From assembly GCA_004292595.1 (NCBI GenBank), contig RDXM01000104.1, positions 1 to 40,048 of the forward strand: a stretch of 40,048 nucleotides of DNA, given 5' to 3'. Numbering within the stretch: position 1 is the stretch's first letter; the number at the start of each line of letters is the position of its first letter. The notes under the pieces were generated by a model that was not told where the DNA came from, did not search any database, and saw only the letters and a program-made list of their open reading frames with translations. A program made the translations under genes and the position numbers. The DNA comes from Candidatus Kapaibacterium sp. (GTDB lineage: Bacteria; Bacteroidota; Ignavibacteria; Kapaibacteriales; UBA4661). Shown here piece by piece: positions 3,540 to 18,966 of this stretch.

Positions 3540-5921
3540 TTACTCGCTCCGAAGCGATTGCACGGGATTCGCCTCCGCTGCCCGCCACGACTGCCCTGCA
3601 ACGGTCAAAAATGCTATCGCCACTGCAGCCGCGCCCGCGCTGGCAAATACCCACCACGACAATTCCACACGATACGCAAAATCCTGAAGCCATTTGCCAG
3701 CAGCCCAGTATGCAAGGGGTGTTGCGAGGACGATGGCAATGCCAACCAATTTCAAAAAGTCTTTCGAGAGAAGCGCGATAATACTTGCCACCGACGCGCC
3801 TAGAACCTTGCGGATGCCAATTTCTTTCGTGCGTCGCTCCGCCGCAAATGCAGCCAATCCGAACAGTCCTAACGACGCAATGACGATTGCTACAATCGTT
3901 ATCGCCATCAGCGTTTGTGCGAGGTTCTCGTCGTCAGCATACAGTTTTGCAAACTCCGCATCAAGAAATTTCAATTCAAGCGGAAACTCAGGTTTGAAGC
4001 TCGAATAGAGTTTTTCGATTGAGGAAATTGTTTGCGAAATATTTTCTGTTTTGAGGCGCAAAAGCATGATAGGAGCGCGGCGATTGAGGCGATATATCAC
4101 GGGCAAAATTGAGGAATGAAGCGACTTGGCGTGAATATCACCGACGACACCAATCACCACTCCAGTCATTTCTCCAGTGTCCAAGGTAAAGCGCACAGTC
4201 TGACCAATCGGGTTCTCCCAACCCATTGCTTTTGCAAACGAGGCATTCACAACAAAACTATTGGCGGAATCACGTCCGCGCTCAAAAAATCGTCCTTCGA
4301 TAAGAGGGATTTGCATTACTTTTGCGAAATCAAAGCTCGTAAAATGCACATCGGACGAGATTGTACGCGCTTCTTTCTGAACAGCACTACTGACGTTCAC
4401 GGACGCTGCGCCTGTCCACAATACAGGACATTGCATCGTCGCACCAGCATCTTCTACGCCTGGAAGCCGCTTCATTTCGTTTAAAATCGCTTCTTGTTTG
4501 TCAAAAAGGCTGTTGAAATGTGCCGAGACAAGTTGCTGTTTGTTGAAGCCTAGCGAAGCAGTATTCATGTAGCGCAACTGGGCGTTGATGACCAGAACAC
4601 CGATAATCAGTGCCGTTGAAATGACGAACTGCCCTACCACCAATATCCGCCGCACATTGCCACGCCGACCGCTTGAAATCGTGCGCGACGTAAGTGCTTC
4701 AGAAGGACGAAACGACGACAACACCAACGCAGCATATCCGCCACTTGAAAACACGGTAACGAGAAAAATACCCGCAGCAACAGCAAAGAAGCGGACTTGA
4801 AAGACATCGGGTCGAATAAATTGTTTGCCTGAAAGCGTATTGAAAAGTGGCAACGCAATTTCAACCAACACGATTGCAAGCAAAAACGCCACAAACACTA
4901 CTCCCAGAGCCTCTCCGAAGAATTGGAGCATTACTTGGAATCGTGTCGCGCCAAAGGTTTTTCGCACCCCGACCTCGCGCGAACGCAGCATGGAGCGGGC
5001 TGTGGAGAGATTTGCATAGTTGATACACGCTAAAAGCAAGACCAATATGCCCACCAAACCAAAGATTTGTACACGTTTTGCCGTGCCTTTTTCGCTCGTG
5101 AGATTCGAGTGCAAGCGGATGTCGGTGAGCGGCTGTAATTCTTGCTTATAGCTCCATGCCGCATTGTATTTCCGAAATGCAGGTGAGATTATTTTTTCCC
5201 CCATTGCAACGACTTTTTCATTCATGGAGTGCCAATTCGTACCACTTTTCAGCATAATATATGTTGTGAGGATGTTGGATTCCCAATGCTCATGATTTGG
5301 TTGATGCTCAAGCGGGATTGCGAAAGCAAAATTGAGGTGAGAATTGCGCGGAATATCCTGCAAAATAGCCACGACGGTGCAAGGAGTTTTCATCACTTCA
5401 ATCGTCTGCCCGATTGCTTTTTCGAGATGATTTTCACCAAAAAGTGAAATCGCCACAGAGCGCGTCAGAACTATGCTGGTAGGCGATTTTTCAAGTGCAA
5501 CAGGATTGCCAAAAAGTATCGGAAACGAAAACATTTTGAAAAACGAAGCATCTGCTGAAATGCCCGCATTTGCCTCATTTGGTTGAATCACAACCGTACC
5601 CCGCTTTAATTCTACCACTGCCGTTAAAAAACGCGCTGTCATTTCAACCTCGTTGTGGTTTTCCTTGAGATATGAGGCTAATTTTGGTGGAGTCAAATTT
5701 GCACGAAACATCTGGGTTTGATTGTTATCCAAGCCGCTAATGATGCGATAAATACGGTCTTTGTTTGCATGAAAGCCATCATAACTGAGTTCATCGGTAA
5801 CATAGAGTGCAATCAGCAGGCACGTCGCCAGCCCTAAAGCCAAGCCAATGATGTTGATAGCGGAGTAGCCTTTTTGCCGCGCAAGATTACGAAGAGCTAT
5901 TTTGAGATAGTTCTGAAACAT
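3540..5921 (-). CDS. MacB/FtsX-type ABC permease, paralog 1
   Basis: Inner-membrane permease of the MacB/FtsX class, 793 residues. These act with a separate ATPase as mechanotransmission complexes that work on periplasmic substrates. Visible order: N-terminal amphipathic stretch (MFQNYLKIALRN), first helix (~21-42), a periplasmic MacB-PCD domain, three helices with the conserved ACINYANLSTAR and REVGVRKTFGA stretch (~290-420), one further helix, a second periplasmic domain, and a C-terminal FtsX domain with the coupling motif RTKEIGIRKVLGAS, ending in ANPVQSLRSE. The start at 5921 matches the conserved N terminus of the paralogs; the frame is open to 6005, but that stretch is the conserved upstream promoter DNA. 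In the usual YPALVLS motif it has YAALVLS. No ATPase lies nearby, and the substrate is unknown. Confidence 0.92.
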   Translation of the reverse strand: MFQNYLKIALRNLARQKGYSAINIIGLALGLATCLLIALYVTDELSYDGFHANKDRIYRIISGLDNNQTQMFRANLTPPKLASYLKENHNEVEMTARFLTAVVELKRGTVVIQPNEANAGISADASFFKMFSFPILFGNPVALEKSPTSIVLTRSVAISLFGENHLEKAIGQTIEVMKTPCTVVAILQDIPRNSHLNFAFAIPLEHQPNHEHWESNILTTYIMLKSGTNWHSMNEKVVAMGEKIISPAFRKYNAAWSYKQELQPLTDIRLHSNLTSEKGTAKRVQIFGLVGILVLLLACINYANLSTARSMLRSREVGVRKTFGATRFQVMLQFFGEALGVVFVAFLLAIVLVEIALPLFNTLSGKQFIRPDVFQVRFFAVAAGIFLVTVFSSGGYAALVLSSFRPSEALTSRTISSGRRGNVRRILVVGQFVISTALIIGVLVINAQLRYMNTASLGFNKQQLVSAHFNSLFDKQEAILNEMKRLPGVEDAGATMQCPVLWTGAASVNVSSAVQKEARTISSDVHFTSFDFAKVMQIPLIEGRFFERGRDSANSFVVNASFAKAMGWENPIGQTVRFTLDTGEMTGVVIGVVGDIHAKSLHSSILPVIYRLNRRAPIMLLRLKTENISQTISSIEKLYSSFKPEFPLELKFLDAEFAKLYADDENLAQTLMAITIVAIVIASLGLFGLAAFAAERRTKEIGIRKVLGASVASIIALLSKDFLKLVGIAIVLATPLAYWAAGKWLQDFAYRVELSWWVFASAGAAAVAIAFLTVAGQSWRAAEANPVQSLRSE

Positions 5922-5928
5922 AGCAATT

Positions 5929-5958
5929 TTGAAAAATGGGTGTGAAAGTGTAGATTTG
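5929..5958 (+). promoter_or_regulatory. Bacteroidota-type promoter, copy 1 (HEPN/MNT)
   Basis: TTG at 5929-5931, a 19-base spacer, and TAGATTTG at 5951-5958. This is a full match to the Bacteroidota consensus (TTG then TAnnTTTG). It points at the HEPN gene starting at 6016. The surrounding ~50 bases recur in front of permeases 2 and 4. Confidence 0.65.
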
Positions 5959-6015
5959 AAAATATGTACAACTATTTCTATCGAAATTATTATTGCTTCT
6001 TTCATACAGCAAACT

Positions 6016-6438
6016 ATGCCCGAACACCAGGAAATACGACGCTCTCAAGAACGATTCTCAGAATTTATCAAAGCATTCGCCACACTGGAACACGCATTTT
6101 CGCTCATGGAAGAGCAAGAGCGTGAACTGACCGACCTTGAGCGCGACGGCGTGTTGCAACGATTTGAATTTACCGTCGAACTTGCATGGAAAGTTCTTCA
6201 AGATGTTCTTTCTGAGCGGGGATATTCCGATGTCAAAGGACCCAAACCCGTGATAAAACAAGCCTTTCAAGATGGTCTCATTAAGGACGGTCATACATGG
6301 ATACAGATGATAACGAGCCGCAATGAAACATCGCATTTGTATAGCGAAGAACGCAGCGCAATCATTTTTCACCGCATTCAGACAGAATACATCCAGCTTT
6401 TGCGGGATTTTAAGGCTGATTTTTCTACAAACCTTTGA
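6016..6438 (+). CDS. HEPN-domain protein (HI0074-like, nucleotidyltransferase partner)
   Basis: 140-residue all-helical protein of the 'nucleotidyltransferase substrate-binding' HI0074 family, a HEPN-fold group. The HEPN signature R-x4-H is seen as R102-N-E-T-S-H107. Family members pair with a minimal nucleotidyltransferase, and many such pairs act as toxin-antitoxin modules in which the HEPN protein is an RNase silenced by nucleotidylation. Here the stop overlaps the start of the next gene, the MNT partner, so the two are translationally coupled. ATG 6016 is chosen because the frame further upstream runs through the conserved promoter block. Toxin function is inferred from family knowledge, not seen. 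Confidence 0.85.
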   Translation: MPEHQEIRRSQERFSEFIKAFATLEHAFSLMEEQERELTDLERDGVLQRFEFTVELAWKVLQDVLSERGYSDVKGPKPVIKQAFQDGLIKDGHTWIQMITSRNETSHLYSEERSAIIFHRIQTEYIQLLRDFKADFSTNL

Positions 6439-6794
6439 GAAACAAACTCGTGAACACCGCACAAATCTTGGGTTTATCGCCAAACGACTTGCACTTGATT
6501 GTGGAAACACTTCGGCAATTTTCCACGATTGAACGTGCTTGTGTTTTTGGCTCGCGGGCGCGTGGCACTGCGGCGTACAACGCGGATATTGACATTGCCA
6601 TTTTTGGAGCTTCATGCACCGCAGAAACCGCACAAAACCTGAAATTTGAGCTTGATGAAGAATTGCCTTTGCCATATAAATTCGACGTTCTTCACGCTGA
6701 AAGCCTTACCAATACTGCCTTGCGAAGCAATATTGCCCGCGATGCCGTTGAAATCTACTCTTCCGTACAAACCTCATCATTACTCGCTGCGTAA
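6435..6794 (+). CDS. Minimal nucleotidyltransferase (MNT, HI0073-like)
   Basis: 119-residue nucleotidyltransferase. It has the fold signature G39-S-R-A-R-G followed by D51-I-D53 (metal-binding acids) and a third acid at about D84 (KFDVLH). It is the expected antitoxin/modifying partner of the HEPN protein directly upstream. The TTG at 6435 overlaps the HEPN stop codon (TTGA); a GTG at 6450 is an alternative start. The last 15 bases overlap, antisense, the last codons of permease 2, so the two converging genes share 6780-6794 and leave no room for a terminator. Confidence 0.85.
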   Translation: MRNKLVNTAQILGLSPNDLHLIVETLRQFSTIERACVFGSRARGTAAYNADIDIAIFGASCTAETAQNLKFELDEELPLPYKFDVLHAESLTNTALRSNIARDAVEIYSSVQTSSLLAA

Positions 6795-9182
6795 AGATTG
6801 CACGGGATTCGCCTCCGCTGCCCGCCACGACTGCCCTGCAACGGTCAAAAATGCTACCACAATCGCAACACTTCCCGCCAACACAAACACGCCCGCACCA
6901 AGGTCAATTTTGTACGCAAAATCTTCCAGCCACTTACTTGAAACCCAGTATGCAAGCGGTGTTGCAAGCACAATCGCAATCCCAACAAGTTTCAGAAAAT
7001 CTTTCGTGAGCAGCCCGATAATACTTGCCACCGACGCGCCCAACACCTTGCGAATACCGATTTCCTTCGTGCGCTGCTCGGCAGTGAACGCCGCCAAACC
7101 AAGCAAACCCAAACAAGAAATCGCAATCGCAATCGCTGCAAAAACCGCAACCACTGACCGTAGCTGCTGTTCACGCTTGTAAGCGTTGTTAAATTCATCA
7201 TCCAAAAACGTGTATTCAAACGGGCGATTCGGAACGGCTTGTTTCCATGCGCGTTCTAGCGAAGCAAGTATTTGTGCGGGGTTGCCAGCACTGAGTTTAA
7301 TACTCATCGTTCCCATAAAATTAGGGTAATAGTGGATAAGCAAAGGTTCTATACTGCTTCGGAGCGTCCCAACGTTGAAATCCTTCACCACGCCCAGCAC
7401 ACGTCCTGTTTTTTCAATATGCCAGCCGCTCGCCTTTTCACCGATATTATAGCCGATTTCCTTACCCACAGCAGTACCATTTTCCCATTTCAATTTTTTT
7501 GCGGCGGCTTCATTTATCAAAAAGCCGCTTTGCTTGTCTGTCTCGGAAGAATTGAAATTACGCCCTTCTTTTATGGAAATTCCATAGTGCGTGAGGAAAT
7601 GTTCATCAATGCAGAGCCATTTCATGCTAGGGTCTTTATCGCCCGACGCAAGATACTTCAACTCAATCGGCATCTGGACTAACACATCGCTTTTGCCTGG
7701 AATGGAGCTGGACATCGAAACGCCCTGCACCCCAGAGACCGCACGAAAACTACTCTTCAAGACTTCTTGCTGCTCGGCATCGTCCTTGCCGCGCAGTTTG
7801 ACAATGAGCATCTGCTCGCGGTCGAAGCCCACATTCTTGGAAACGATGTATTGAAGCTGGTTCTGGACGACGAGCGTTCCGATAATCATAGCGATTGACA
7901 AGGAAAATTGCACCACGACCAACACCGAGCGCAAAGAGATACTACCCGCCCGCCCCTGAAAGCGCGATGCAGCCTTGCTTTTCAAGGCTTCCACAGGCTT
8001 AAAATTCGACAACATCAGTGCTGGATACACACCCGCAAACACGCTCACTATCAGCAATAATGCCGCAAGCACACACCCCACGAGAGCAAGATTGAATGAA
8101 CTAGCACCAAACAGTGATAAATGCTTGCCTGTGAGAGTATTAAAGGATGGCAAGAGCAATTCTACCGCCAGAAGCGAGACGGCAAGTGCGATTGCGGTTA
8201 GTATCACCGATTCGCCCCAAAACTGCACGGCAAGTTGTCCGCGTTTTGCGCCGAGTGTTTTTCGCACACCAACTTCCCGCGCACGGTTGCTGTACCGTGC
8301 CGTTGCGAGGTTTGTGTAATTGATACACGCCAAGCCCAAAATAATTGCCAAAACCACCGCGAGAAAATTCACGGACGATTGCGCACCTTCATCCACAAGG
8401 TGAATGCTTGAGAGCGGGTGCAGTGCGAGGCTGACGGGAATGTCCTTTGCAAGTTTGTTTTTGAGCAATGCAACCTGTGTTTGTGCGGCTTCTGCGGATG
8501 TTCCTTCTTTCAAAAGAATATATGTTAAGAATGGATTCCAAAACAGGCTTTGAAAGGCGTTCGGAAGAGCAAATTCGCGCTTGACGGTCTCCATTGAACC
8601 GAGAATTTCAAATTGTAAATGCGAAGCAGCATGTACATCGCGCATGACACCAGTAATTTTCATATCAAACTTATTGTCCACGCGAATGACCTTGCCTATT
8701 GCGTATGTTGTGCCGAAATACCGCGTGGCTGCTGTTTCGGAAATCACCGCAGAATAAGGCTCTACGAGCGCAGTCCGCATATTTCCTTGTACGAGCGGGA
8801 AATCAAAAATTTCAAACACATTTGCATCAGCAAATTTCACGGTTTTGTCATAGACTTGGGTTGTGCCAACTGTCAGCAATATTTCCCCAAAATGCTCATA
8901 CAATCTTGTTCCAGCCTGAATGTGTGGAATATCTGTCGTCAGGGATTCCAACCAGCCGGGCGCGGTATTAGCAGGGACTTGATGTGTTTTGTCCCACTGC
9001 GTGAAGCGGTAGATTCTATCAGCCTTTGAGTGGAATTTGTCAAACGAAATATCATCGGCAATGTGTAAGCCCAGAAGAATCGTACACGTCAGACCCAGAG
9101 CTAGTCCGATGATGTTGATGGCGGTATAGGATTTTTGCCGAAGAAGGCTTCGGAGCGCGATTTTGAGGTAGTTTTGGAACAT
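6780..9182 (-). CDS. MacB/FtsX-type ABC permease, paralog 2
   Basis: 800-residue paralog with the same layout as its neighbours: N-terminal MFQNYLKIALRSLLRQKSY, first helix, periplasmic domain, three-helix block with GLACINYTNLATAR and REVGVRKTLGA, a further helix, a second periplasmic domain, and a C-terminal FtsX domain with RTKEIGIRKVLGAS and ANPVQSLRSE. The YPALMLS motif is intact. The start at 9182 lines up with the other paralogs; a longer frame to 9299 would read through the promoter of the divergent Uma2-like gene. Its 3' end overlaps the MNT gene by 15 bases. The C-terminal domain is much closer to the other copies than the periplasmic domains are, as expected if the coupling part is constrained or homogenised while the sensing part diverges. 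Confidence 0.92.
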   Translation of the reverse strand: MFQNYLKIALRSLLRQKSYTAINIIGLALGLTCTILLGLHIADDISFDKFHSKADRIYRFTQWDKTHQVPANTAPGWLESLTTDIPHIQAGTRLYEHFGEILLTVGTTQVYDKTVKFADANVFEIFDFPLVQGNMRTALVEPYSAVISETAATRYFGTTYAIGKVIRVDNKFDMKITGVMRDVHAASHLQFEILGSMETVKREFALPNAFQSLFWNPFLTYILLKEGTSAEAAQTQVALLKNKLAKDIPVSLALHPLSSIHLVDEGAQSSVNFLAVVLAIILGLACINYTNLATARYSNRAREVGVRKTLGAKRGQLAVQFWGESVILTAIALAVSLLAVELLLPSFNTLTGKHLSLFGASSFNLALVGCVLAALLLIVSVFAGVYPALMLSNFKPVEALKSKAASRFQGRAGSISLRSVLVVVQFSLSIAMIIGTLVVQNQLQYIVSKNVGFDREQMLIVKLRGKDDAEQQEVLKSSFRAVSGVQGVSMSSSIPGKSDVLVQMPIELKYLASGDKDPSMKWLCIDEHFLTHYGISIKEGRNFNSSETDKQSGFLINEAAAKKLKWENGTAVGKEIGYNIGEKASGWHIEKTGRVLGVVKDFNVGTLRSSIEPLLIHYYPNFMGTMSIKLSAGNPAQILASLERAWKQAVPNRPFEYTFLDDEFNNAYKREQQLRSVVAVFAAIAIAISCLGLLGLAAFTAEQRTKEIGIRKVLGASVASIIGLLTKDFLKLVGIAIVLATPLAYWVSSKWLEDFAYKIDLGAGVFVLAGSVAIVVAFLTVAGQSWRAAEANPVQSLRSE

Positions 9183-9189
9183 GGCAATT

Positions 9190-9219
9190 TTGAAAAATGG
9201 GTTTGAAAGTGTAGATTTG
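9190..9219 (+). promoter_or_regulatory. Bacteroidota-type promoter, copy 2 (Uma2-like gene)
   Basis: TTG 9190-9192, a 19-base spacer and TAGATTTG 9212-9219, with the same spacing and near-identical flanks as the copies at 5929 and 15865. The downstream gene starts at 9253. Confidence 0.65.
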
Positions 9220-9252
9220 AAGATATGTTCAACCAAATTTTTGGAAAATCCG

Positions 9253-9675
9253 ATGATTACTCGACAAGAGGCATTACTTATGGGTGCAAATTCTCCCAAA
9301 GACCATCAGCGCGTCATTTCAAGGCTTATCGTTGGTCTTGGGAATCTATATTCAATGGGAACGTTGAAATTAGAACCCTTTCCCGAAACACCGCTCATTG
9401 ATGGCGAGCCGAGTCCCGTGCCAGATGTTTCCTTGTTTGATAATGTCCTCTACGAAACACCTGTGATTATCGAAGTCAATCATGCAGGCGGCATTAAATC
9501 TGACTTAAAAAAAATCCAAGCACTGATTGATGAAGAAAGCTACGGAATTGTCGAGGGATTTATTTTTGATTACAAACGCCAAGAATGGCATAAATACAAG
9601 CTCGGCAAAGGAATTATCAAAGAAAATCCTTCATTCTGCGAAGCAATTAACCTCGACCTCGCAACCTTACTCTAA
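9253..9675 (+). CDS. Uma2-like (PD-(D/E)xK fold) protein, copy A
   Basis: 140-residue protein resembling the Uma2/DUF820 family, putative PD-(D/E)xK-fold proteins of unknown role. Seen: P57-D58, then the hydrophobic strand VIIEV with E74, then a D/K-rich helix (SDLKKIQ) and the GFIFDYKRQEWHKY strand. These fit the family's PD...E pattern, but the last residue of the nuclease triad is not a clear lysine, and the protein is shorter than typical members (about 180-200). It is clearly related to copy B at 15925; the last 15 residues (PSFCEAINLDLATLL) are identical. ATG 9253 is preferred because upstream codons lie in the promoter. Confidence 0.65.
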   Translation: MITRQEALLMGANSPKDHQRVISRLIVGLGNLYSMGTLKLEPFPETPLIDGEPSPVPDVSLFDNVLYETPVIIEVNHAGGIKSDLKKIQALIDEESYGIVEGFIFDYKRQEWHKYKLGKGIIKENPSFCEAINLDLATLL

Positions 9676-9747
9676 ACAAATTCGTGCCAGAATCACGAAG
9701 CAAGATTCCATCAGCCTTTCAAGCAATATACCCCTTTGCTCCAAAAT

Positions 9748-9796
9748 AAAAACTGTCCGCAGATGAACGCTCAATGTTCATTTACGGACAGTTTTT
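9748..9796. terminator. Bidirectional terminator-like repeat, copy 1
   Basis: Arms AAAAACTGTCCG (9748-9759) and CGGACAGTTTTT (9785-9796), with an inner pair ATGAAC/GTTCAT (9763-9768, 9776-9781). A-rich on one side and T-rich on the other, so it can terminate in both directions. It lies between the converging ends of Uma2-like copy A and permease 3. A second copy is at 18918-18966, with the left ~45 bases of flank also recognisably related. Confidence 0.75.
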
Positions 9797-9818
9797 GTTT
9801 TGTGGATGAAGCCAATCT

Positions 9819-12200
9819 TTACTCGCTTCTGAGCGATTGTACAGGATTCGCCTCCGCAGCCTGCCACGCTTGGCTTGCAACGGTCAAAGCCGCCGTAGCA
9901 AGAGCAATGCTACCCGCAAGAAGAGCTAGCGATGCGTCAAGCTCTATGCGATAGGCGTAATCTTGTAGCCAATTCCTTGCAGACCAGTATGCAAGCGGTG
10001 TAGCGAGGACAAAGGCAATAGCAACCAATACCAAAAACTCACGCCCAACAAGGCTGATGATATTTGCCACCGACGCACCCAAAACCTTGCGAATACCGAT
10101 TTCCTTCGTGCGTTGCTCGGTTGCAAGCAGCGTCAATCCTAGCAATCCCATGACTGAAATGCCAAGCGCGAAGGCTGAAGCAAGTGCAATCATATTCCGC
10201 CAATGCTCACTATTGCTGTATTGGCGGCGATTTTCTTCATCCAAAAAGGTGTAGTTGAAAGGTCGCAATGGCACAAGTCGGTGGTAAAGATTTTCTATTG
10301 CTGCCAGTGTTTGTGCTTTGTTCACGGGATTGATACGCAGCAACAATTTCCCAAACGGCAATTCTGAACCGTAGATAAAGAGTTGCGGGCGAATGGGATA
10401 TTGCAGCGACTCGTAATGATAATCTTTCACCACGCCAACAACGGTCACGTTTCGCGCTTTGCCATTGAAAAAATCAATGCGCTTGCCAACGGCATCTTGC
10501 CAGCCCGCAGACCGCACAAATGCTTCATTCACGAGAACTGCGTCGGTCGAATCACCACGTAATTCTTGCGAAAAATTACGTCCTGCGGCAAGGCGACAAT
10601 TCATCGTTTTCAGAAAATCATTGTCAATATGCTCGTAGGAAATGGCTATTTCCTTCCCGTTTACTTTTGAGTTTGTTCCAAACCACCATTCTGTGCGGGG
10701 TGTGAGGTTTTCTACGCCTGAAATTTTTGCAAATTCCGCTTTCAACATTGCCTGGCGTGGGAGATTATCCGCCTCTGGCAAAGAAATCGCCACGAGGTTG
10801 CTGCTGTCGTAGCCCAAATCTTTTGTGGTGAGGAAATTAAACTGCTTCGAGAGCGTAATAGTGCCAATGAGAAGGAATATCGTGAGCGCGAACTGCACCA
10901 CAATCAACACACGCGCCACAGCACTTTTGCGCACCAATGGACTTCTCGCACTCAGCGTTTGTGAGGCATCGAAGCGCGAAACCACCAGCGCGGGGTACAC
11001 GCCCGCAGCAAAACCCGTAACAAGAAACAATAGCCCCAACGCAAGTAATAACGGCGCATCCAGCATACTTATTAGCTGAAATTTTTTGCCAGCCACAATG
11101 TTGAACATCGGTAAAATGAGTTCTGCGATGCCAAGCGCGACAACAAATGCAATGCTTGTTTGCAGAAATGATTCCGTAAGAAATTGTGCGATAATCTTGC
11201 TACGAGGACTGCCAATCGTCTTGCGGATGGCGATTTCACGCGCCCGGCGAGATGACTGCGCAATGCTTAAACTCACAAAATTGATGCACGCGAGCAGCAA
11301 AATACCAAGCGCGATTGCACCAAGAACCTTGGAATACAATGGGTTGCCAGCATTAGCGATGCCGATATTGACGTTTGTTGATAAGTGCATTTCGGTGAAA
11401 GGCTGCACCGACCAGATAAACTGCCCATTCCAGCCGTGTTTGCGCTCGCTTTCCATTTCGGTTTTCGCTTTTGTTGCAAAGACTCGCGCCATTATTGCGG
11501 TGATTTCTTGCAAATCTGCCCCCTCACGCAGAAGCAAAAATGTTGGATAGGAAAGCGTCATCCATGTTGGGTCGGGATTTTTTGCAGCAAAGGCAGTGAA
11601 AGACAACACGATGCCAAAGGTGATAGACGAATTCTGTGGCGGATTCTTCGCAACCCCAGAAACCACGTAGGTTTGAAAGCTATTTCGCTCTTCAATTTCT
11701 ATTGATTTTCCCACTACATCGGTTGTGCCAAAATACTTTTGCGCCGTTTCCTCACTCAGCACAACGGAGTACGCGCCTGATAAAACCGTGCTTGGATTAC
11801 CACTAAGAAGCGGAAACGTAAAGACGGTGAAGAAATTATCATCCACCCATGTTGCTTTTTCGTTGAATGTTTTCGCGCCAATTTTCAGCAGAGCATCACG
11901 CTCCCGAACACGCACAAAATCTCGTATTGCGGGGATTTCTTCCTTGAATGCCGGACCTTGCACCATAGAGGCAATGCCCATCGTATGCCCTACTCCTAGC
12001 TTATCTACTGGGCGGCAGGTGATACGGGCAAGGTTCGGTGCATTTTTGTGGAATCGGTCAAAACTCAGTTCGTCTTTGATGAATAGCACAATCACCACAC
12101 AGCACGCCAGCCCAAGACTCAAGCCAACAATGTTGATAGCAGCAAGCATTTTGCGCCGAAGAAGACTGCGCAGAGCGAGAGAAAGATGGTTTTGAAACAT
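9819..12200 (-). CDS. MacB/FtsX-type ABC permease, paralog 3
   Basis: 793-residue permease. The N terminus (MFQNHLSLALRSLLRRKML) and the central block (ACINFVSLSIAQSSRRAREIAIRKTIG) are the most diverged of the five, but the C terminus again has RTKEIGIRKVLGAS and ANPVQSLRSE. Layout: helix 1, first periplasmic domain, three helices, one helix, second periplasmic domain, C-terminal FtsX domain. Unlike paralogs 1, 2 and 4 it lacks the conserved upstream promoter block and has no divergent plus-strand gene; a serine-hydrolase gene on the same strand ends 48 bases upstream (12249), so the two may be co-transcribed. No ATPase partner is in the window. Confidence 0.92.
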   Translation of the reverse strand: MFQNHLSLALRSLLRRKMLAAINIVGLSLGLACCVVIVLFIKDELSFDRFHKNAPNLARITCRPVDKLGVGHTMGIASMVQGPAFKEEIPAIRDFVRVRERDALLKIGAKTFNEKATWVDDNFFTVFTFPLLSGNPSTVLSGAYSVVLSEETAQKYFGTTDVVGKSIEIEERNSFQTYVVSGVAKNPPQNSSITFGIVLSFTAFAAKNPDPTWMTLSYPTFLLLREGADLQEITAIMARVFATKAKTEMESERKHGWNGQFIWSVQPFTEMHLSTNVNIGIANAGNPLYSKVLGAIALGILLLACINFVSLSIAQSSRRAREIAIRKTIGSPRSKIIAQFLTESFLQTSIAFVVALGIAELILPMFNIVAGKKFQLISMLDAPLLLALGLLFLVTGFAAGVYPALVVSRFDASQTLSARSPLVRKSAVARVLIVVQFALTIFLLIGTITLSKQFNFLTTKDLGYDSSNLVAISLPEADNLPRQAMLKAEFAKISGVENLTPRTEWWFGTNSKVNGKEIAISYEHIDNDFLKTMNCRLAAGRNFSQELRGDSTDAVLVNEAFVRSAGWQDAVGKRIDFFNGKARNVTVVGVVKDYHYESLQYPIRPQLFIYGSELPFGKLLLRINPVNKAQTLAAIENLYHRLVPLRPFNYTFLDEENRRQYSNSEHWRNMIALASAFALGISVMGLLGLTLLATEQRTKEIGIRKVLGASVANIISLVGREFLVLVAIAFVLATPLAYWSARNWLQDYAYRIELDASLALLAGSIALATAALTVASQAWQAAEANPVQSLRSE

Positions 12201-12248
12201 AATTTTTTTGGAAAATAGTCGTTGAAAAAGTGCTTGAATAAACGAGAT

Positions 12249-13331
12249 TTACTTATTTGTAGATAAGTAATTCTTTGCAATTTGGTCAATAAAGTATTCA
12301 GGCGATGCCCCTTGCAAATTCGTCAAAACAACTACTGATACATCCTCATTCCGATACACGACCACCGCAGACCGCCCACCGCCTACGGACACAACTGCGG
12401 GGTTATTTGTTCTCAAGGCTGTCAGCCAACCTATACCATACCCATTTAGTACATCCCCAAATCCCGCTGTTTTACCATTCGTTAATCTGGATGGTGTCCA
12501 CATTTCATCAAGTGTTTCCTTCTTTTTTACGATTTCAAGTTTTTGTAAAGCTATCAGCCAGTTTGCTATTTCTATTGCTGTCGATTGCATTCCGGCTGCC
12601 GCTCTCACAAAAGGCGGGAAAATTTCTGGGTGTATATTGGTAAGATTACCATTAACGAAGTACGTATATCCTCTTGCGGCGTGATATGGAATATCGTAAA
12701 AATCACCAAAACCAAATTTTAACGTGCTTTTCATTCCTGCTTTTTCCCATTGTTGTTTTTTAACAACATCTTCAAATGACATTCCGCAAACTTTTTCAAT
12801 AGCTTTTTTTAAGAGAACATAATTCGTTTGGCTATAGCTGAACTGCTCTCCCGCTCGAAATTCATTCGGCAATGTTTTTACTTTCTGCCATGACTCAACT
12901 TCGCCATCAGCGATGAGTTTACCATTTCCATCCATTACATTCGGAATACCCGATATATTGCTTGCCAACTGGCGTATAGTTACATTTTGCCATGAAATTG
13001 GCAAACCATCTACATATTTTGAAATAGGTGCTTGCAGGTCAATTTTTCCTTCCTCTACCAACTGCATAATTGCTACACCCGTGAATGCTTTAGTAATTGA
13101 ATTTATTGTAAATAACGTATTTTGATCAACAGGAATTGAGTCTTGCAAATTTGCATATCCATAATTTCCTGTTTTTACGAGTTTGCCATTTTTCACAACT
13201 GCCAATTGTAAACCAGTAATTTTTCTTGCCGTCATCTCTTTTTGAATGATAGCATCAACGTTGTCATTTGTTTGTGCAAATAAGGATGTACTCATCGCAC
13301 AAAAAAGTATTGTTAGGGGTAATTTTTTCAT
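12249..13331 (-). CDS. Beta-lactamase-fold serine hydrolase with degenerate motifs
   Basis: 360-residue exported protein of the class C beta-lactamase / penicillin-binding-protein-like family (signal peptide ~1-20, cleavage after LFAQ). The nucleophile motif S78-I-T-K81 is present. Other family landmarks are altered: the YxN motif reads Y166-S-Q168, the usual LLxHTSG reads LASNISG, and the usual HxG-G reads SVGGG. Activity may therefore be changed or lost, in contrast to the canonical homolog at 19026. ATG 13331 is chosen over an upstream TTG at 13343. It is on the same strand as permease 3 and ends 48 bases before it. The substrate is unknown; a link to cell-envelope peptides is only inference. 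Confidence 0.82.
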   Translation of the reverse strand: MKKLPLTILFCAMSTSLFAQTNDNVDAIIQKEMTARKITGLQLAVVKNGKLVKTGNYGYANLQDSIPVDQNTLFTINSITKAFTGVAIMQLVEEGKIDLQAPISKYVDGLPISWQNVTIRQLASNISGIPNVMDGNGKLIADGEVESWQKVKTLPNEFRAGEQFSYSQTNYVLLKKAIEKVCGMSFEDVVKKQQWEKAGMKSTLKFGFGDFYDIPYHAARGYTYFVNGNLTNIHPEIFPPFVRAAAGMQSTAIEIANWLIALQKLEIVKKKETLDEMWTPSRLTNGKTAGFGDVLNGYGIGWLTALRTNNPAVVSVGGGRSAVVVYRNEDVSVVVLTNLQGASPEYFIDQIAKNYLSTNK

Positions 13332-13375
13332 GAGGATTTTCAATTGAAATGAATTGGACTTATCGGTTTATTTGT

Positions 13376-13400
13376 ATGGTAAAATGCTTTCATTTACCAT
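13376..13400. other. Imperfect inverted repeat upstream of serine hydrolase 1
   Basis: ATGGTAAAATG (13376-13386) and CATTTACCAT (13391-13400) form a hairpin with one bulged A. It lies between the 3' end of permease 4 and the start of the hydrolase, so it could be an operator for the hydrolase or a terminator for permease 4. No T-run follows. Confidence 0.35.
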
Positions 13401-13415
13401 TTCTGCTTGGAGTGT

Positions 13416-15857
13416 TTACTCGCTTCTGAGCGATTGCACTGGATTCGCCGCCGCCGCCCGCCACGCCTGAGCAGCAACCGTGATAAATGCTATCACCACA
13501 GCTGCCACGCCTGCGCTCGCAAACATCCACCACGTGAGTTCCATGCGATAGACAAAGCCTTGTAACCATTTCCCCGCAGCCCAGTATGCAAGAGGAGTTG
13601 CCAAAACAATAGCAATGCCGACCAACACGAGAAAATCCTTAGAAAGAAGCGCAATAATACTTGCCGCTGACGCGCCCAATACCTTGCGAATACCAAGTTC
13701 CTTTCTCCGAACTTCTACTGCAAACGCAACCAATCCAAACACACCGAGCGAAGCAATAAATATCGCCAAACCCGCGAAAACACTGATGAGCGAAGCCATT
13801 GCTTGCTCGGCTTGGTAGAGTTTGGCAAAGTTTTCATCCAAAAATGAATAGTCGAGCATCCGTTCAGGCAAGTGTTTACGCCATGTTTGTTCGATGTTTT
13901 GTAAAAGTTCGGGTATATTTTGTGCTTGCACTTTCAATAAAAATGACTCGAAATTTGCTTCGCTTGGAGCAATCATCACGATTGCGGGGCGAATACTTCT
14001 GTGCATGGATTCGTAATGAAAATTCTTCACAACACCAATAACGGTCAGGTTTCGACCATTATTTCCACCAAAATTCACCTGCTTGCCAATCGGATTTTCT
14101 TTTCCAAGTCCAAGCGCATTCACCGCCGCTTCGTTCAGCAAACAGGATGCAGTTTTATCGTTCACATTATTTTGGGAAAAGTTTCGTCCCTGCAACATAT
14201 TCATCTGCATTGTTGGCACAAAAGCCGCATCAGTGCTAATTTCCGCGCTAATCACCGTATTCTTTTCTGCTGCACCAATCAGGGTTATTCCGCTTTGACT
14301 TGGCGACGCGCCCGGACTGTAACTTGTGCCGCTCACACTCGAAACACCAGCAACACTGCGCAACGACTGTTGTAAAGCCGCATAGCGAGAAATAGAGGTA
14401 GAATCGCCCGGCAAGGCGAGGCGAATGACTTGCTCGGTGCGCAAACCCAAATCCTTTGAACGCGTGTAATGAAGCTGCATTGCGACAACAATCGTGGCAA
14501 TCATCATCAAAATTGAAATGGTAAATTGCAGAGCAACAAGGCTTTTCCGAACGAGTGCGCCAGAGCGCGAAGTCGTCAAACGCCCCGCCAACACTCGCAC
14601 GGGAGTAAATCCCGACAACGCAAACGCAGGATAGCTGCCAGCAGCAATACCAGTCAAAAGTGCAGCAAATAGCAAGCCCAGTATCAATGCGGGATTCGAG
14701 GCATATCCAACCGACAATTCTTTCCGAACAATGCTATTGAAACTTGGCAGAGCAAGCTCCACCAACACAAGTGCGAGAACAAGCGCGATGCAGCTAATGA
14801 CGACGGCTTCGGTCAGAAACTGCATGATAAGTTGGTTGCGCTGCGCCCCCAATGCCTTGCGCACACCCACTTCCCGCGCTCTACGCTGAGAACGGGCTGT
14901 TGCAAGATTCATAAAATTCATACACGCAATCGCCAAAATAAACACCGCCACACCCGCAAAAACACTGACCGTTGTGCGACTGGATTGAGGCTGAAACTCG
15001 CTTGGCGTGGGGTTGAGGTGAATATCGGTCAAAGGTTGCAAAGGATAATGCACATTTACTTTTAATTCTTTCATAAAGCCCGCCATGTAGCGCGTGAGGA
15101 ATTTCGGCATTTGCGCTTCGATAACGCTCGCATTTACGCCATCTTGCAGCTCCACGTAAGTTGAGGCATCGAGAAATAAGCCCCAAAGATTATTCGGGTC
15201 GGCACCTTGGTCGCGTATCCATTTTTCGATAGAAGCAAAGGAAACAAGCGCGTCGTAGCGAAGGTGGATATTGTGCGGCGCGTCAGTAATGATACCGCTT
15301 ACACGGTGTGGCTCGGTATTTTCGAGAAGAATAGTTTTGCCGAGAAGCTGCTCCAATGGCGTAGAAGTACCAAAATATTTTCGTGCAAGCGATTCCGTCA
15401 AAACCACCGAATACGGCTCTACGAGGGCGGTTGCAGGACTTCCTGCCAGAAACGTGGTTGCAAACATTTTCGGATAATTTTTATCCACCGCAAAAACGCG
15501 CTCTTCGGCAAACATTTTATCGCCATTGCGTACAACCATTTTTTTGTACTTAAACATCCGCACTGCTTGTTTTATGCCCGACAAATCCCGCATCATTGCT
15601 GGCGCGAGAGGGATTTGCGCATTTGCATTTGCCGTGTTCCCTTTTGCTGTATCAAGTCCACGATAAAAGCGTGGCGTTACGCGGTAGATGCTGGCAGCAT
15701 TGCTGTACACGCGGTCGTAGCTGAGTTCGTCCTGCACAAAGAGCAGCATCACAAGGCAACACGCCATGCCGACGGCAAGCCCAATGATGTTGATTGCAGA
15801 ATATGATTTCTGCCGAAGAAGGCTTCGGAGCGCGATTTTGAGGTAGTTCTGGAGCAT
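13416..15857 (-). CDS. MacB/FtsX-type ABC permease, paralog 4
   Basis: 813 residues, starting MLQNYLKIALRSLLRQKSY at 15857; the frame is open to 15953 but that stretch carries the promoter of the divergent gene. Domain order is as in the other paralogs, with ACMNFMNLATARSQRRAREV and RKALGAQ in the central block. The C-terminal coupling motif differs slightly (RRKELGIRKVLGAS in place of RTKEIGIRKVLGAS) and the tail reads RAAAANPVQSLRSE. The first periplasmic domain is somewhat longer than in paralogs 1 and 3. The serine-hydrolase gene lies 84 bases downstream on the same strand. Confidence 0.92.
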   Translation of the reverse strand: MLQNYLKIALRSLLRQKSYSAINIIGLAVGMACCLVMLLFVQDELSYDRVYSNAASIYRVTPRFYRGLDTAKGNTANANAQIPLAPAMMRDLSGIKQAVRMFKYKKMVVRNGDKMFAEERVFAVDKNYPKMFATTFLAGSPATALVEPYSVVLTESLARKYFGTSTPLEQLLGKTILLENTEPHRVSGIITDAPHNIHLRYDALVSFASIEKWIRDQGADPNNLWGLFLDASTYVELQDGVNASVIEAQMPKFLTRYMAGFMKELKVNVHYPLQPLTDIHLNPTPSEFQPQSSRTTVSVFAGVAVFILAIACMNFMNLATARSQRRAREVGVRKALGAQRNQLIMQFLTEAVVISCIALVLALVLVELALPSFNSIVRKELSVGYASNPALILGLLFAALLTGIAAGSYPAFALSGFTPVRVLAGRLTTSRSGALVRKSLVALQFTISILMMIATIVVAMQLHYTRSKDLGLRTEQVIRLALPGDSTSISRYAALQQSLRSVAGVSSVSGTSYSPGASPSQSGITLIGAAEKNTVISAEISTDAAFVPTMQMNMLQGRNFSQNNVNDKTASCLLNEAAVNALGLGKENPIGKQVNFGGNNGRNLTVIGVVKNFHYESMHRSIRPAIVMIAPSEANFESFLLKVQAQNIPELLQNIEQTWRKHLPERMLDYSFLDENFAKLYQAEQAMASLISVFAGLAIFIASLGVFGLVAFAVEVRRKELGIRKVLGASAASIIALLSKDFLVLVGIAIVLATPLAYWAAGKWLQGFVYRMELTWWMFASAGVAAVVIAFITVAAQAWRAAAANPVQSLRSE

Positions 15858-15864
15858 GATAATT

Positions 15865-15894
15865 TTGAAAAATGGGTGTGAAAGTGTAGATTTG
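15865..15894 (+). promoter_or_regulatory. Bacteroidota-type promoter, copy 3 (Uma2-like gene)
   Basis: TTG 15865-15867, a 19-base spacer, TAGATTTG 15887-15894. Same spacing and near-identical flanks as the copies at 5929 and 9190. It drives the Uma2-like gene at 15925. Confidence 0.65.
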
Positions 15895-15924
15895 TGATTA
15901 TGTTCAACCAATTTTTTGAAAACG

Positions 15925-16350
15925 ATGATTACTCTTGAAGAAGCACTTATCATGGGAACAAATGCCCCAAAACCGCATCAGCGCGTCATTATGAGGTTGT
16001 CTGCTGAATTGTTTTTTTTGTATGATAAACAAAAAACAATCGTTTTAGAGCCGCTTTCTGAAACCATGCTGGATGAAGGACAAACCAGCCCGACACCTGA
16101 TATTATCTTGTATGACAACATCGAAATGCAAACACCTGTCATCATTGAAATCACGCACGGCGACGGTGTGAAAAAAGACCTTAAGAAGGTGCGCGAGTTG
16201 ATAGATGCTGATGATTACGGCATCCGCGAAGGTTTTGTCTATGACTACAAGCGCGACAAATGGCATAAATATCAACAAGGAGAAGGTGATATTTCGGACA
16301 AACCTTCTTTTTGCGAAGCAATCAATCTTGATTTAGCTACCTTGCTCTAA
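15925..16350 (+). CDS. Uma2-like (PD-(D/E)xK fold) protein, copy B
   Basis: 141-residue relative of the protein at 9253: same opening (MIT-x-x-EAL-x-MG), same PD and VIIEI strands, same GFVYDYKRDKWHKY strand and identical 15-residue end. Roughly half of the residues agree by eye, so the duplication is not recent at protein level although the promoter block is nearly identical. It ends 9 bases before the converging 3' end of permease 5. Function is unknown; assignment to Uma2/DUF820 rests on the PD...E pattern and is tentative. Confidence 0.65.
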   Translation: MITLEEALIMGTNAPKPHQRVIMRLSAELFFLYDKQKTIVLEPLSETMLDEGQTSPTPDIILYDNIEMQTPVIIEITHGDGVKKDLKKVRELIDADDYGIREGFVYDYKRDKWHKYQQGEGDISDKPSFCEAINLDLATLL

Positions 16351-16359
16351 GCTCCATTA

Positions 16360-18792
16360 TTATTCGCTTCTAAGCGACTGCACGGGATTCGCCTGCGCAG
16401 CCCGCCACGCCTGTCCTGCAACAGTTATAAATGCTATCACGACAGCCATTACACCTGCTGCCGCAAACATCCACCACGTGAGTTCCACGCGATACGCGAA
16501 ATCCTGAAGCCACTTGCCCATACCCCAGTATGCAAGCGGTGTTGCGAGGATAATTGCGATACCAACTAATTTCAAAAAGTCTTTGCTGAGAAGCGCGATA
16601 ATACTTGCCACCGACGCGCCTAATACCTTGCGGATACCGATTTCCTTTGTACGCTGCTCGGCGGTGAAGGCGGCAAGCCCGAATAAACCGAGACAGGCAA
16701 TGACAATCGCAACCGATGTAAAGACGCTCATAATAGAGCCGATGCGCTGTTCGCTACGATAGATTCGGTCAAAGGCATCATCGGCGAATTGATATTCAAA
16801 GGGCTTATTGGGATTGGTGCGTTTCCAAATTTTTTCCACAGAAGCAAGAACTGATGCGGCTGCTGAGGCTTCAAAGCGAATGCTTGTTGCGCCCGTTGTT
16901 TTTCCAAAAAAGAGCGCGAGTGGATTGATATTCTCTCGCAAGGATTCATAATGAAAATCTTTTACAACACCAATAACGGTGAAGGTTTCAAGACCGCTGC
17001 TGAAAAACTGCGTGGTTACTTGCTTTCCAAGCACATCTTTTGTTCCAAAAAGACTGAGCGCAAGTGATTCATTGATGATAACATTCGTGGAATCGCTCAC
17101 GTTTTTCGCATCAAAATTGCGTCCTTGCGCCATTTCCATTGAGAATGTTGGCACATAATCGGCATCCACACTCCATACTTGTATAATTTTTCCTTGCCCT
17201 TGCTGCCCTTTCCCAGCATACATCGGGCTACTGTTGCGACTGCTCCCAACGCTTCCCATCGGGATAAAGTTTGTTACCGTCGCTGTTTGTACGCCTGCAA
17301 GCCGCATCACTTCTTGCTTGAAGCTCACAATGTTTTGCGAAAAGCGTGAATCAGGATTTTTCACAATCAACACCTGTTCGCGCTGAAAACCAAGCTGCTT
17401 TGTTTGAATAAAACGGAGTTGTCGGAAAATAACGAGTGTGCCGATAACTAATGCAACGGAGGCTGTAAACTGCACCACAACAAGTGCCGCACGAAGCCCG
17501 CGATTGCGGCTACCGCTGGATGTATCACCTTTGAGCACCCTCACAGGCTGATACCGCGATAGCACGAGTGCGGGATACATTCCTGCAAGAAGGCTCACCA
17601 TCAGAAACAAACCACCGAACAAACCCAGAAAAAATGAGCTATGCAGCATCTTCCGTGAAAGCTCCTTCCCCGCAAGAGTGTTGAATGTAGGCAGGGCAAT
17701 TTCAATCAAACAAAATGCCACTACAAGTGCGCACAGCACCATCAGACTTGATTCCATGAGAAACTGCACGACAAGATTTTTGCGTTGTCCACCCAATGTT
17801 TTGCGAATACCAACTTCCTTTGCACGGTTCGCCGCCCGCGCCGTTGCAAGATTCATGAAGTTCACACAGGCAATCAGCAGCACACACGCAGCAACCGCCG
17901 AAAACACCCACACGTATTGCATACTGCCATTGGGCGAGAGTTCTCCGACTTTCGCGCCTGCACTCAGGTGAATGCTCGTAAGCGGTACAAGCGAGTATTG
18001 ATAACGGTTTCCAGCTTTTATTAACTCGGTGTAGCTTGTTTGAAATACTTTCTCGGCAAGAGGCGCGACGTACTTTTTCACCATGCTCGCAAATGTTGCC
18101 TCCATGCTGCGCAAAGAAGCCCCTTTTTTGAGGAGAAGATACGTTACATAATTATTCGACAACCAAGCATTGGAGCGGGAATCAGACCACGAAGACATTG
18201 AAATCAAGATATTGAACGGCAAGTGTGTGTTGTGTGGTAAATCTTGCATCACTGCACCAACCGTGTATGTTTGCCCGTCGTCGTTTGTAAGCTGCTTGCC
18301 GACTGGGTTTTCCACACCAAAATATTTTTTTGCTATTGATTCCGAAATAACGACATTCCGAACATCCCTGAGTGCCGCTTCAGCACTGCCTTGCAGCACG
18401 GGAACAGAAAAGACCTTGAAGAAACTTGAATCAGCAAAACCGACATTTTCTTCCCGAAATACCTGATTGTTTCTGCGGAAATTCCACGCACCAACAGCGC
18501 GAAAGCGTACATATTCCTCAACTTCAGGAAGTTCAAGTTTTGAAACTGGTCCAACAGGGTCGCAGGCAACAGCCGTGCTGAATTCTTGCCCTTGAAACTT
18601 GATGTCTCCTTCTACACGATAGATTCTATCAGCGTTTGCGTAGTGTTTGTCAAAGGAAAGCTCATCCACGACATACAAGCAAATAAGCGCACAAACACTG
18701 ATGCCAAGCGCAAGCCCGATGATATTGATGGCAGAATAGCCTTTGTGCCGAAGAAGGCTTCGGAATGTGATTTTGAGGTAATTTGTGAACAT
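16360..18792 (-). CDS. MacB/FtsX-type ABC permease, paralog 5
   Basis: 810 residues, MFTNYLKITFRSLLRHKGY start. The central block has ACVNFMNLATARAANRAKEVGIRKTLGGQ, the YPALVLS motif is present, and the C-terminal domain has RTKEIGIRKVLGAS and RAAQANPVQSLRSE. It is last in the array. Its upstream region lacks the conserved promoter block of paralogs 1, 2 and 4; instead the terminator-like repeat at 18918 separates it from the serine hydrolase upstream, so it is probably transcribed on its own. The substrate is unknown and no ATPase is nearby. Confidence 0.92.
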   Translation of the reverse strand: MFTNYLKITFRSLLRHKGYSAINIIGLALGISVCALICLYVVDELSFDKHYANADRIYRVEGDIKFQGQEFSTAVACDPVGPVSKLELPEVEEYVRFRAVGAWNFRRNNQVFREENVGFADSSFFKVFSVPVLQGSAEAALRDVRNVVISESIAKKYFGVENPVGKQLTNDDGQTYTVGAVMQDLPHNTHLPFNILISMSSWSDSRSNAWLSNNYVTYLLLKKGASLRSMEATFASMVKKYVAPLAEKVFQTSYTELIKAGNRYQYSLVPLTSIHLSAGAKVGELSPNGSMQYVWVFSAVAACVLLIACVNFMNLATARAANRAKEVGIRKTLGGQRKNLVVQFLMESSLMVLCALVVAFCLIEIALPTFNTLAGKELSRKMLHSSFFLGLFGGLFLMVSLLAGMYPALVLSRYQPVRVLKGDTSSGSRNRGLRAALVVVQFTASVALVIGTLVIFRQLRFIQTKQLGFQREQVLIVKNPDSRFSQNIVSFKQEVMRLAGVQTATVTNFIPMGSVGSSRNSSPMYAGKGQQGQGKIIQVWSVDADYVPTFSMEMAQGRNFDAKNVSDSTNVIINESLALSLFGTKDVLGKQVTTQFFSSGLETFTVIGVVKDFHYESLRENINPLALFFGKTTGATSIRFEASAAASVLASVEKIWKRTNPNKPFEYQFADDAFDRIYRSEQRIGSIMSVFTSVAIVIACLGLFGLAAFTAEQRTKEIGIRKVLGASVASIIALLSKDFLKLVGIAIILATPLAYWGMGKWLQDFAYRVELTWWMFAAAGVMAVVIAFITVAGQAWRAAQANPVQSLRSE

Positions 18793-18917
18793 GGCATTTG
18801 TCCAAAAAATGAAAAATGGTGTTGTATTTTTTTTGAATACCCAGCCAAGATGTATGCCAATTTACGAAAGCAAGATTTTATGCGGCTTTTGAGGTATATT
18901 CCTTTTTGCTCAAAAAC

Positions 18918-18966
18918 AAAAACTGTCCGTAGATGAACGCTCAATGTTCATTTACGGACAGTTTTT
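18918..18966. terminator. Bidirectional terminator-like repeat, copy 2
   Basis: Nearly identical to 9748-9796 (one base differs, in the left part of the loop region): arms AAAAACTGTCCG and CGGACAGTTTTT with an inner ATGAAC/GTTCAT pair. It lies downstream of the minus-strand serine hydrolase 2 (which ends at 19026) and upstream of permease 5, consistent with terminating the hydrolase transcript. Confidence 0.7.

What the first reader, a model, noticed from the sequence alone, without database searches (positions are those of the whole stretch)
5919..15930. Cloned promoter block linking permeases to swapped plus-strand cargo genes
The ~50 bases just upstream of permeases 1, 2 and 4 are almost identical and contain a full Bacteroidota promoter pointing away from the permease (TTG-N19-TAGATTTG at 5929, 9190, 15865). 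The cargo differs: HEPN/MNT, Uma2-like A, Uma2-like B. Promoter DNA is more conserved than the cargo proteins, so a permease/promoter landing site seems to have been copied and reloaded with small genes, some of toxin-antitoxin type. I know of no described system with this layout.
Basis: partly seen in the sequence, partly recalled or inferred. Interest (0 to 1): 0.62.

Follow-up and report, generated by a model that had tools for sequence, protein, structure and literature searches.

The report
Swappable toxin-gene slot beside permeases
In a little-known group of bacteria, the gap behind several similar transporter genes works like a slot, often with a ready-made promoter at its edge, in which small toxin-type genes have been swapped repeatedly, even between sister species.

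Summary
In detail: the block (TTG-N19-TAGATTTG) lies at 5929, 9190 and 15865, behind three of five tandem MacB/FtsX permeases, and nowhere else in this draft genome within 3 mismatches. I compared 66 permease 5' flanks from eight related genomes: 22 hold divergent cargo, namely Uma2-like (17), HepT/MntA (3) or VapBC (2). Slot content does not follow the permease tree (23 changes; shuffled mean 23.6). In sister species G005 the permease 4 orthologue (95% identical) keeps the block but carries HEPN/MNT, the orthologue of the window's unit-1 pair, instead of Uma2-like B. UmaA is closer to a gene of another species of the genus (dS 0.59; ribosomal L2 1.75) than to any Uma2-like gene found in the sister species. 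Some cargo lies between a permease and a sigma54-like element. Best reading: a cassette slot for solo-toxin or toxin-antitoxin genes, exchanged by recombination. Exchange is well supported; mechanism, promoter activity and function are inferred. My paper searches found no description of this layout.

The parts
3540..5921 (-). permease 1 (MacB_PCD + FtsX); ATG at 5921
5926..5958 (+). block 1: promoter-like TTG-N19-TAGATTTG in the permease 1 leader
6016..6438 (+). HEPN (HepT-like) cargo gene; RX4HXY present as RNETSHLY
6435..6794 (+). MNT (MntA-like) cargo gene with GSX10DXD; overlaps the 3' end of permease 2. TTG start as listed; the G005 homologue starts at a GTG a few codons later
6780..9182 (-). 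permease 2; ATG at 9182
9187..9219 (+). block 2
9253..9675 (+). Uma2-like A (140 aa); dN/dS 0.04 against the G002 copy
9676..9689 (-). sigma54-like element TGGCACGAATTTGT just beyond the UmaA stop, on the permease strand
   Evidence: pattern match only
9742..9802 (.). hairpin with 27-base arms
9819..12200 (-). permease 3, no block
12249..13343 (-). beta-lactamase-family gene (PF00144) behind permease 3, co-directional; G005 has a permease relic, a block and VapBC there
13416..15857 (-). permease 4; G005 orthologue 95% aa identical; ATG at 15857
15862..15894 (+). block 3
15925..16350 (+). Uma2-like B (141 aa), ending about 10 bases from the permease 5 stop
16360..18792 (-). permease 5, no block
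18845..18860 (-). sigma54-like element TTGGCATACATCTTGG upstream of permease 5
   Evidence: pattern match only
18918..18966 (.). hairpin with 21-base arms, terminator-like on the + strand

Best explanation
The tandem permeases carry exchangeable cargo slots. The permease leader contains a Bacteroidota-type promoter pointing away from the permease (the block). Behind its -7 box sits a small divergent cargo gene in the gap up to the 3' end of the next permease. The usual cargo is a Uma2-like gene; in some slots it is replaced by HepT/MntA, VapBC or a canonical Uma2. Shown by comparison: cargo differs at orthologous slots of sister species, is decoupled from the permease lineage, has relatives across species that are closer than the genome background, and is under purifying selection where tested. 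Inferred: exchange runs by homologous recombination between paralogous slots (permease 3' ends on one side, leader and promoter on the other) after horizontal entry; the promoter is active; the cargo acts as solo-toxin or toxin-antitoxin modules that persist by addiction or by a stress or defence role. Where cargo lies between a permease and a sigma54-like element, a sigma54 transcript would run antisense through the cargo, so permease and cargo could be expressed in opposition (inference only).
For: Permease 4 orthologue in G005: 90.7% over 2524 bp including the block, but with HEPN/MNT, which matches window unit 1 at 82% over 1131 bp, a stretch that includes about 350 bp of the next permease's conserved end. 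G000:C142 and G005:C12:111928: permeases 94%, Uma2-like genes 52% identical; Mantel of Uma2-like against permease identity r = -0.19, p = 0.95, 14 slots. Slot labels on the tree of 57 permeases: 23 changes, shuffled mean 23.6, as low in 170 of 400; first labelling 19 against 19.1. UmaA dS 0.59 between G000 and G002, L2 dS 1.75. Promoter pattern in the first 60 bases of 17 of 22 cargo flanks and 3 of 44 others, Fisher 9e-9; by eye the three others hold Uma2-like remnants. The three closest HEPN matches (100, 84, 61%) are in slots, the other 14 of 17 are 43% or lower; the two closest PIN matches (100, 72%) are in slots. dN/dS 0.04 UmaA, 0.12 HEPN, 0.15 MNT.
Against: No direct trace of recombining arms: HEPN/MNT did not bring the adjacent permease 3' end along, and over 10 bounded slots cargo identity correlates with neither flank (low power). 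The closest relative of UmaA (95%, with the block) stands in G002:C365 behind an unrelated gene, not a permease start, so block and cargo can also be found together away from the permease start. The block at up to 3 mismatches is in only 3 of 21 genomes. 5 of 22 cargo flanks lack the strict promoter pattern in the first 60 bases, among them 1 of 3 HEPN/MNT and both VapBC flanks (one VapBC has the block 116 bases away). Homogenised permease ends are uneven: the last four 30-column bins are 43, 62, 35 and 62% identical at 4-fold sites in the window, 18-47% elsewhere. The tree test had no positive control: species labels needed 43 changes against 37.5 shuffled. Draft, partly metagenome-assembled genomes; no expression data.
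Confidence: 0.62

Rival explanations
1. Plain tandem duplication: one permease with its divergent Uma2-like gene was duplicated in place, the shared promoter is simply inherited, and HEPN/MNT is one later replacement.
For: Uma2-like A and B are 60% identical paralogues, units 2 and 4 share the leader up to the start codon, and 17 of 22 cargo flanks are Uma2-like.
Against: Uma2-like and permease identities are uncorrelated; the 5' slot differs in 4 of 5 close G000/G005 permease pairs, and HEPN/MNT sits behind different permeases in the two.
Confidence: 0.15
2. Homing: the Uma2-like protein, a candidate PD-(D/E)XK-type nuclease, cuts unloaded or foreign slots and is copied in by gene conversion; toxin-antitoxin genes use the same gaps.
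For: Fixed position, unloaded junctions of 36-48 bases, deletion scars, turnover independent of permease lineage, close relatives in other species.
Against: No cleavage evidence; Uma2 similarity below Pfam's cut-off and a poor structure model; HepT/MntA and VapBC need another route.
Confidence: 0.15
3. Functional pair: the cargo acts with or on the adjacent permease (for instance shared envelope stress control), and recombination merely diversifies it.
For: Divergent orientation kept, shared promoter, conserved Uma2-like ends with a more variable middle, sigma54-like elements on the permease strand.
Against: Cargo and permease lineages do not co-vary, and 44 of 66 flanks have no recognised cargo of these families.
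Confidence: 0.15

Closest known systems
Type VII HepT/MntA toxin-antitoxin (PMC7641770, passages seen)
   Same: HEPN next to MNT, RX4HXY and GSX10DXD motifs, PF08780 with an NTP-transferase domain
   Different: here it stands behind a promoter block shared with Uma2-like genes, in a permease flank; toxicity untested
Uma2 / COG4636 solo-toxin candidates (PMC2701414, passages seen)
   Same: small nuclease-like genes without a partner, in many copies; [quoted passage not shown]
   Different: this Uma2-like family is short (about 140-153 aa in the longer copies), below Pfam's cut-off in the window, and tied to permease starts (17 of 20 genes)
Integron cassette arrays and toxin-antitoxin or defence hotspots (recalled)
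   Same: promoter at one edge, exchangeable small genes, toxin-antitoxin modules among them
   Different: no recombination site seen by eye, integrase not searched for; each slot has its own permease edge and holds one cargo as a rule
ADOP duplicated permeases (TIGR03434)
   Same: tandem MacB/FtsX permeases, best NCBIfam match for the two tested
   Different: 319 and 296 bits against a cut-off of 622.3

Membership tests
Type VII HepT/MntA | HEPN protein with RX4HXY next to MNT protein with GSX10DXD | tested here: met
   RNETSHLY and GSRARGTAAYNADID; PF08780 126.3 bits, Polbeta 50.6 bits
Type VII HepT/MntA | NCBIfam HepT and MntA equivalog cut-offs | tested here: not met
   18.7 and 38.9 bits against 60 and 60; HI0074 subfamily 98.8 against 55.8 is met
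Type VII HepT/MntA | RNase toxicity relieved by adenylylation | not testable with these tools
   needs bench work
Uma2 (PF05685) | Pfam gathering score | tested here: not met
   UmaB 14.5 bits against 27, UmaA no match at E up to 5; 4 of 10 aligned relatives match at E up to 1, best 2.1e-4
Uma2 (PF05685) | PD-(D/E)XK-type fold | tested here: inconclusive
   AlphaFold2 mean pLDDT 54.6; D59, E75 and D85 invariant in 10 sequences
ADOP permease (TIGR03434) | curated cut-off 622.3 bits | tested here: not met
   319 and 295.9 bits for the two of five permeases given
VapBC (G005 slot) | PIN toxin with a recognised upstream antitoxin | tested here: inconclusive
   PIN 58.4 bits against 23.6; VapC equivalogs below cut-off; the upstream 72-aa protein matches no family
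Integron-like cassette array | integrase and recombination sites | not tested
   no search made; right boundaries only looked at by eye

The most novel reading that the evidence does not exclude
A new kind of self-maintaining cassette locus: the permease leader supplies a promoter that stays in place while the transcribed cargo is exchanged right behind its -7 box, driven by the Uma2-like nuclease homing into slots, with toxin-antitoxin modules as competing occupants and sigma54-driven antisense transcription setting permease against cargo.
Probability: 0.15. Interest if true: 0.85.

Novelty: new variant of a known kind. Interest (0 to 1): 0.63.

Why it matters
Toxin-antitoxin and solo-toxin genes are known to move, but where and how chromosomal ones are exchanged is rarely seen at the level of a single slot. 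Here one position and two sister species give before-and-after pairs, so the route of exchange and the reason the cargo persists become testable. It is also a natural setting in which a candidate solo toxin (Uma2-like) and accepted toxin-antitoxin pairs replace each other.

Tried and rejected
Plain duplication was the first expectation; the tree and Mantel tests speak against it. Co-transfer of the neighbouring permease 3' end with HEPN/MNT was tested and not seen. Correlations between cargo and flanking permease pieces over 10 bounded slots were not significant; only the permease 3' end and its own body were linked. The AlphaFold2 model of the Uma2-like protein (10 sequences) was too poor to use and no fold search was made. 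Rfam gave no match in the window. One viral-contig scan with the Uma2-like alignment gave no relative. Paper searches: one search was useless (the term matched 'adopt'). The listings (Uma2; Kapabacteria with toxin-antitoxin; cassette and permease words; orphan permease; Ignavibacteria FtsX; hotspot words) showed me no description of this layout; I read none of those papers except PMC2701414 in passages. PMC7641770 (found) and PMC7366714 were also seen in passages only.

Rows dropped before counts: the weaker permease matches outside the stretches I took (such as G000:C102, C75, C71, C183 and those of G003) were not fetched; G008 gave no flank; for G007 and G009, not covered, only regions around Uma2-like hits were taken. 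Of 82 permease-like frames 72 had an assignable start and 66 distinct flanks remained after removal of duplicates. The tree used 57 of 66, those with 600 aa or more. The Mantel test used 14 of 17 Uma2-like flanks. The second labelling of the tree changed 5 rows by hand: four to canonical Uma2, one to remnant. Matches and 49 outside the fetched flanks were not checked for other permeases nearby.
Full report
What is there. The window is a whole 40,048-base contig of a 4.6 Mb draft genome, G000. Of nine public loci found with the Uma2-like protein, eight come from contigs named Ignavibacteria or Candidatus Kapaibacterium; the ninth is a 27-residue match in a contig named Helicobacteraceae, not followed. 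Five MacB_PCD/FtsX permeases lie in tandem on the minus strand from 3540 to 18792. It fits the Bacteroidetes primary-sigma consensus, TAnnTTTG at -7 and TTTG near -33 (PMC7366714, one passage). It occurs three times in the genome at up to 3 mismatches. Behind it come HEPN/MNT, Uma2-like A and Uma2-like B.

The Uma2-like family. A and B are 60% identical. The family matches in 8 of 61 genomes searched, all of this taxonomic family. Its 21 matches are 20 genes if the two pieces at G007:C8:16481-17010 are one. 17 of 20 start within 270 bases behind a permease start of this family or of a permease fragment. G000:C97 and G002:C365:2630 do not, and G008 was not checked.

Slots compared. I read 66 distinct permease 5' flanks from eight genomes of the family (what was left out is in Tried and rejected). 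22 of 66 hold a recognised divergent cargo: 17 Uma2-like (degenerate ones included), 3 HEPN/MNT, 2 VapBC. The pattern TTTG/TTG-N17-21-TAG[AT]TT stands in the first 60 bases of 17 of these 22 and of 3 of the other 44 (Fisher p 9e-9). By eye those three hold remnants: a degenerate Uma2-like start at G002:C29, the first codons at G009:C134:6861, and the last codons at G005:C12:204519. So the promoter marks present or past cargo. The five cargo flanks without it are two Uma2-like, one HEPN/MNT (G009) and both VapBC flanks; one VapBC has a block with 3 mismatches farther out. Canonical Uma2 genes stand divergently within 1.5 kb of 6 of the 66 permease starts. Of 32 bounded slots 7 are unloaded junctions of 36-48 bases.

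Exchange between sister species. G000 and G005 are close (ribosomal L2 99% identical, dS 0.24). The tree has five close G000/G005 permease pairs, and in four of five the 5' slot differs. Pair 1, permease 4: Uma2-like B in G000, HEPN/MNT in G005, with 90.7% DNA identity over 2524 bp including the block. Pair 2, permease 3: a co-directional beta-lactamase-family gene in G000; in G005 a permease 3'-end relic, a block with 3 mismatches and VapBC. Pair 3, permease 2: Uma2-like A in G000; no block but a co-directional small gene in G005. Pair 4, C142: both have Uma2-like genes, 52% identical behind 94% identical permeases. Pair 5, C97 and C12:73188, has a canonical Uma2 in both, with stops in the G000 frame. 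In pairs 1 and 4, by eye, similarity runs from the permease through the -7 box and falls off behind it.

The HEPN/MNT of G005 is the orthologue of the window's unit-1 pair (85% and 90% aa, dS 0.68 and 0.37; orthologous permeases 2, 3 and 4 have dS 0.71, 0.40 and 0.35). So the same pair sits behind different permeases. Between block and HEPN, G005 keeps a recognisable Uma2-like start with ACG for ATG.

Across slots. Over 14 slots Uma2-like identity does not follow permease identity (r = -0.19, p = 0.95). On the tree of 57 permeases slot content needs 23 changes against a shuffled mean of 23.6, as low in 170 of 400 shuffles. There was no positive control: species labels needed 43 against 37.5 shuffled, as expected if each permease clade holds several species. 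Uma2-like A is 95% identical to a G002 gene with dS 0.59, and the first 38 codons of B match a truncated G002 gene at 100% with dS 0.19, while L2 between these genomes has dS 1.75. The best Uma2-like match between sister species G000 and G005 is 55%. This points to entry from outside and replacement. The three closest HEPN matches are in slots (100, 84, 61%); the other 14 of 17 are 43% or lower. Of 14 HEPN matches in the family 3 are in the fetched slots, where 0.02 are expected by length; for PIN 2 of 13 against 0.02 (62.8 kb of 46.1 Mb).

Two further layers. On the permease strand, sigma54-like TGGCAY-N-TT elements appear 27 times in 44.5 kb of flanks, against 1 on the other strand and 2 in reversed sequence. 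Within 150 bases of the start they are in 18 of 44 flanks without cargo and 1 of 22 with cargo; other strand 0 of 66, reversed 1 of 66. In four Uma2-like flanks (G000:9182, G001:C417:17864, G006:50766, G009:C224) such an element lies beyond the Uma2-like stop or remnant, and in a fifth (G009:C134:10843) inside its C-terminal extension, so the cargo stands between it and the permease. Second, 4-fold-degenerate sites in the last four 30-column bins of the permease alignment are 43, 62, 35 and 62% identical within the window (18-47% elsewhere) and 51, 70, 57 and 48% within G005 (22-48% elsewhere), which hints at uneven gene conversion at the permease ends.

Results against. HEPN/MNT did not bring the adjacent permease end along. 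No flank correlates with cargo over 10 bounded slots. The closest relative of UmaA stands, with the block, behind an unrelated gene and not behind a permease start. The block at up to 3 mismatches is limited to 3 of 21 genomes. Leaders without cargo resemble it weakly (mean z 1.2 in 41 flanks, 4.6 in 25 with cargo or remnants), so part of its conservation is that of a permease leader. The Uma2-like protein is below Pfam's cut-off and its model is poor. All assemblies are drafts.

Verdict. Exchange is well supported; recombination as its mechanism, promoter activity and toxin function are inferred.

Noticed in passing
window 9742-9802 and 18918-18966; G000:C142:12868-12906; flanks in L040, L053, L055, L060, L070: A hairpin (CTGTCCG..ATGAAC..GTTCAT..CGGACAG) recurs in permease 5' regions, often near the sigma54-like element; 3 places in the own genome at up to 3 mismatches.
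   Followed up: partly
L047 (G002:C365) about 2434-2590: A short element with inverted ends (TAGGGCAATCGC...) and a repeated flank CTCCCACAC lies between an unrelated gene and the block; it looks like a MITE (read by eye).
   Followed up: no
L047 700-987; also in L043, L045, L067, L070: A roughly 95-aa family of unknown function recurs co-directionally in 7 of 66 permease flanks.
   Followed up: partly
ten genomes of the family: Pfam Uma2 matches are numerous: 15-53 in 8 of 10 genomes, 1 in G003, 0 in G008, with tandem clusters such as G005:C44 and G002:C497.
   Followed up: no
window 187-3438: A large sensor kinase (Reg_prop propeller, Y_Y_Y, HisKA, HATPase_c) borders the permease array.
   Followed up: no
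L064 2024-2697 (G005:C12) and L042 8514-8966 (G000:C97): At the 3' side of the close permease pair C97/C12:73188, G005 has VapBC-like genes and G000 a Uma2-like gene, so the 3' gap differs too.
   Followed up: partly
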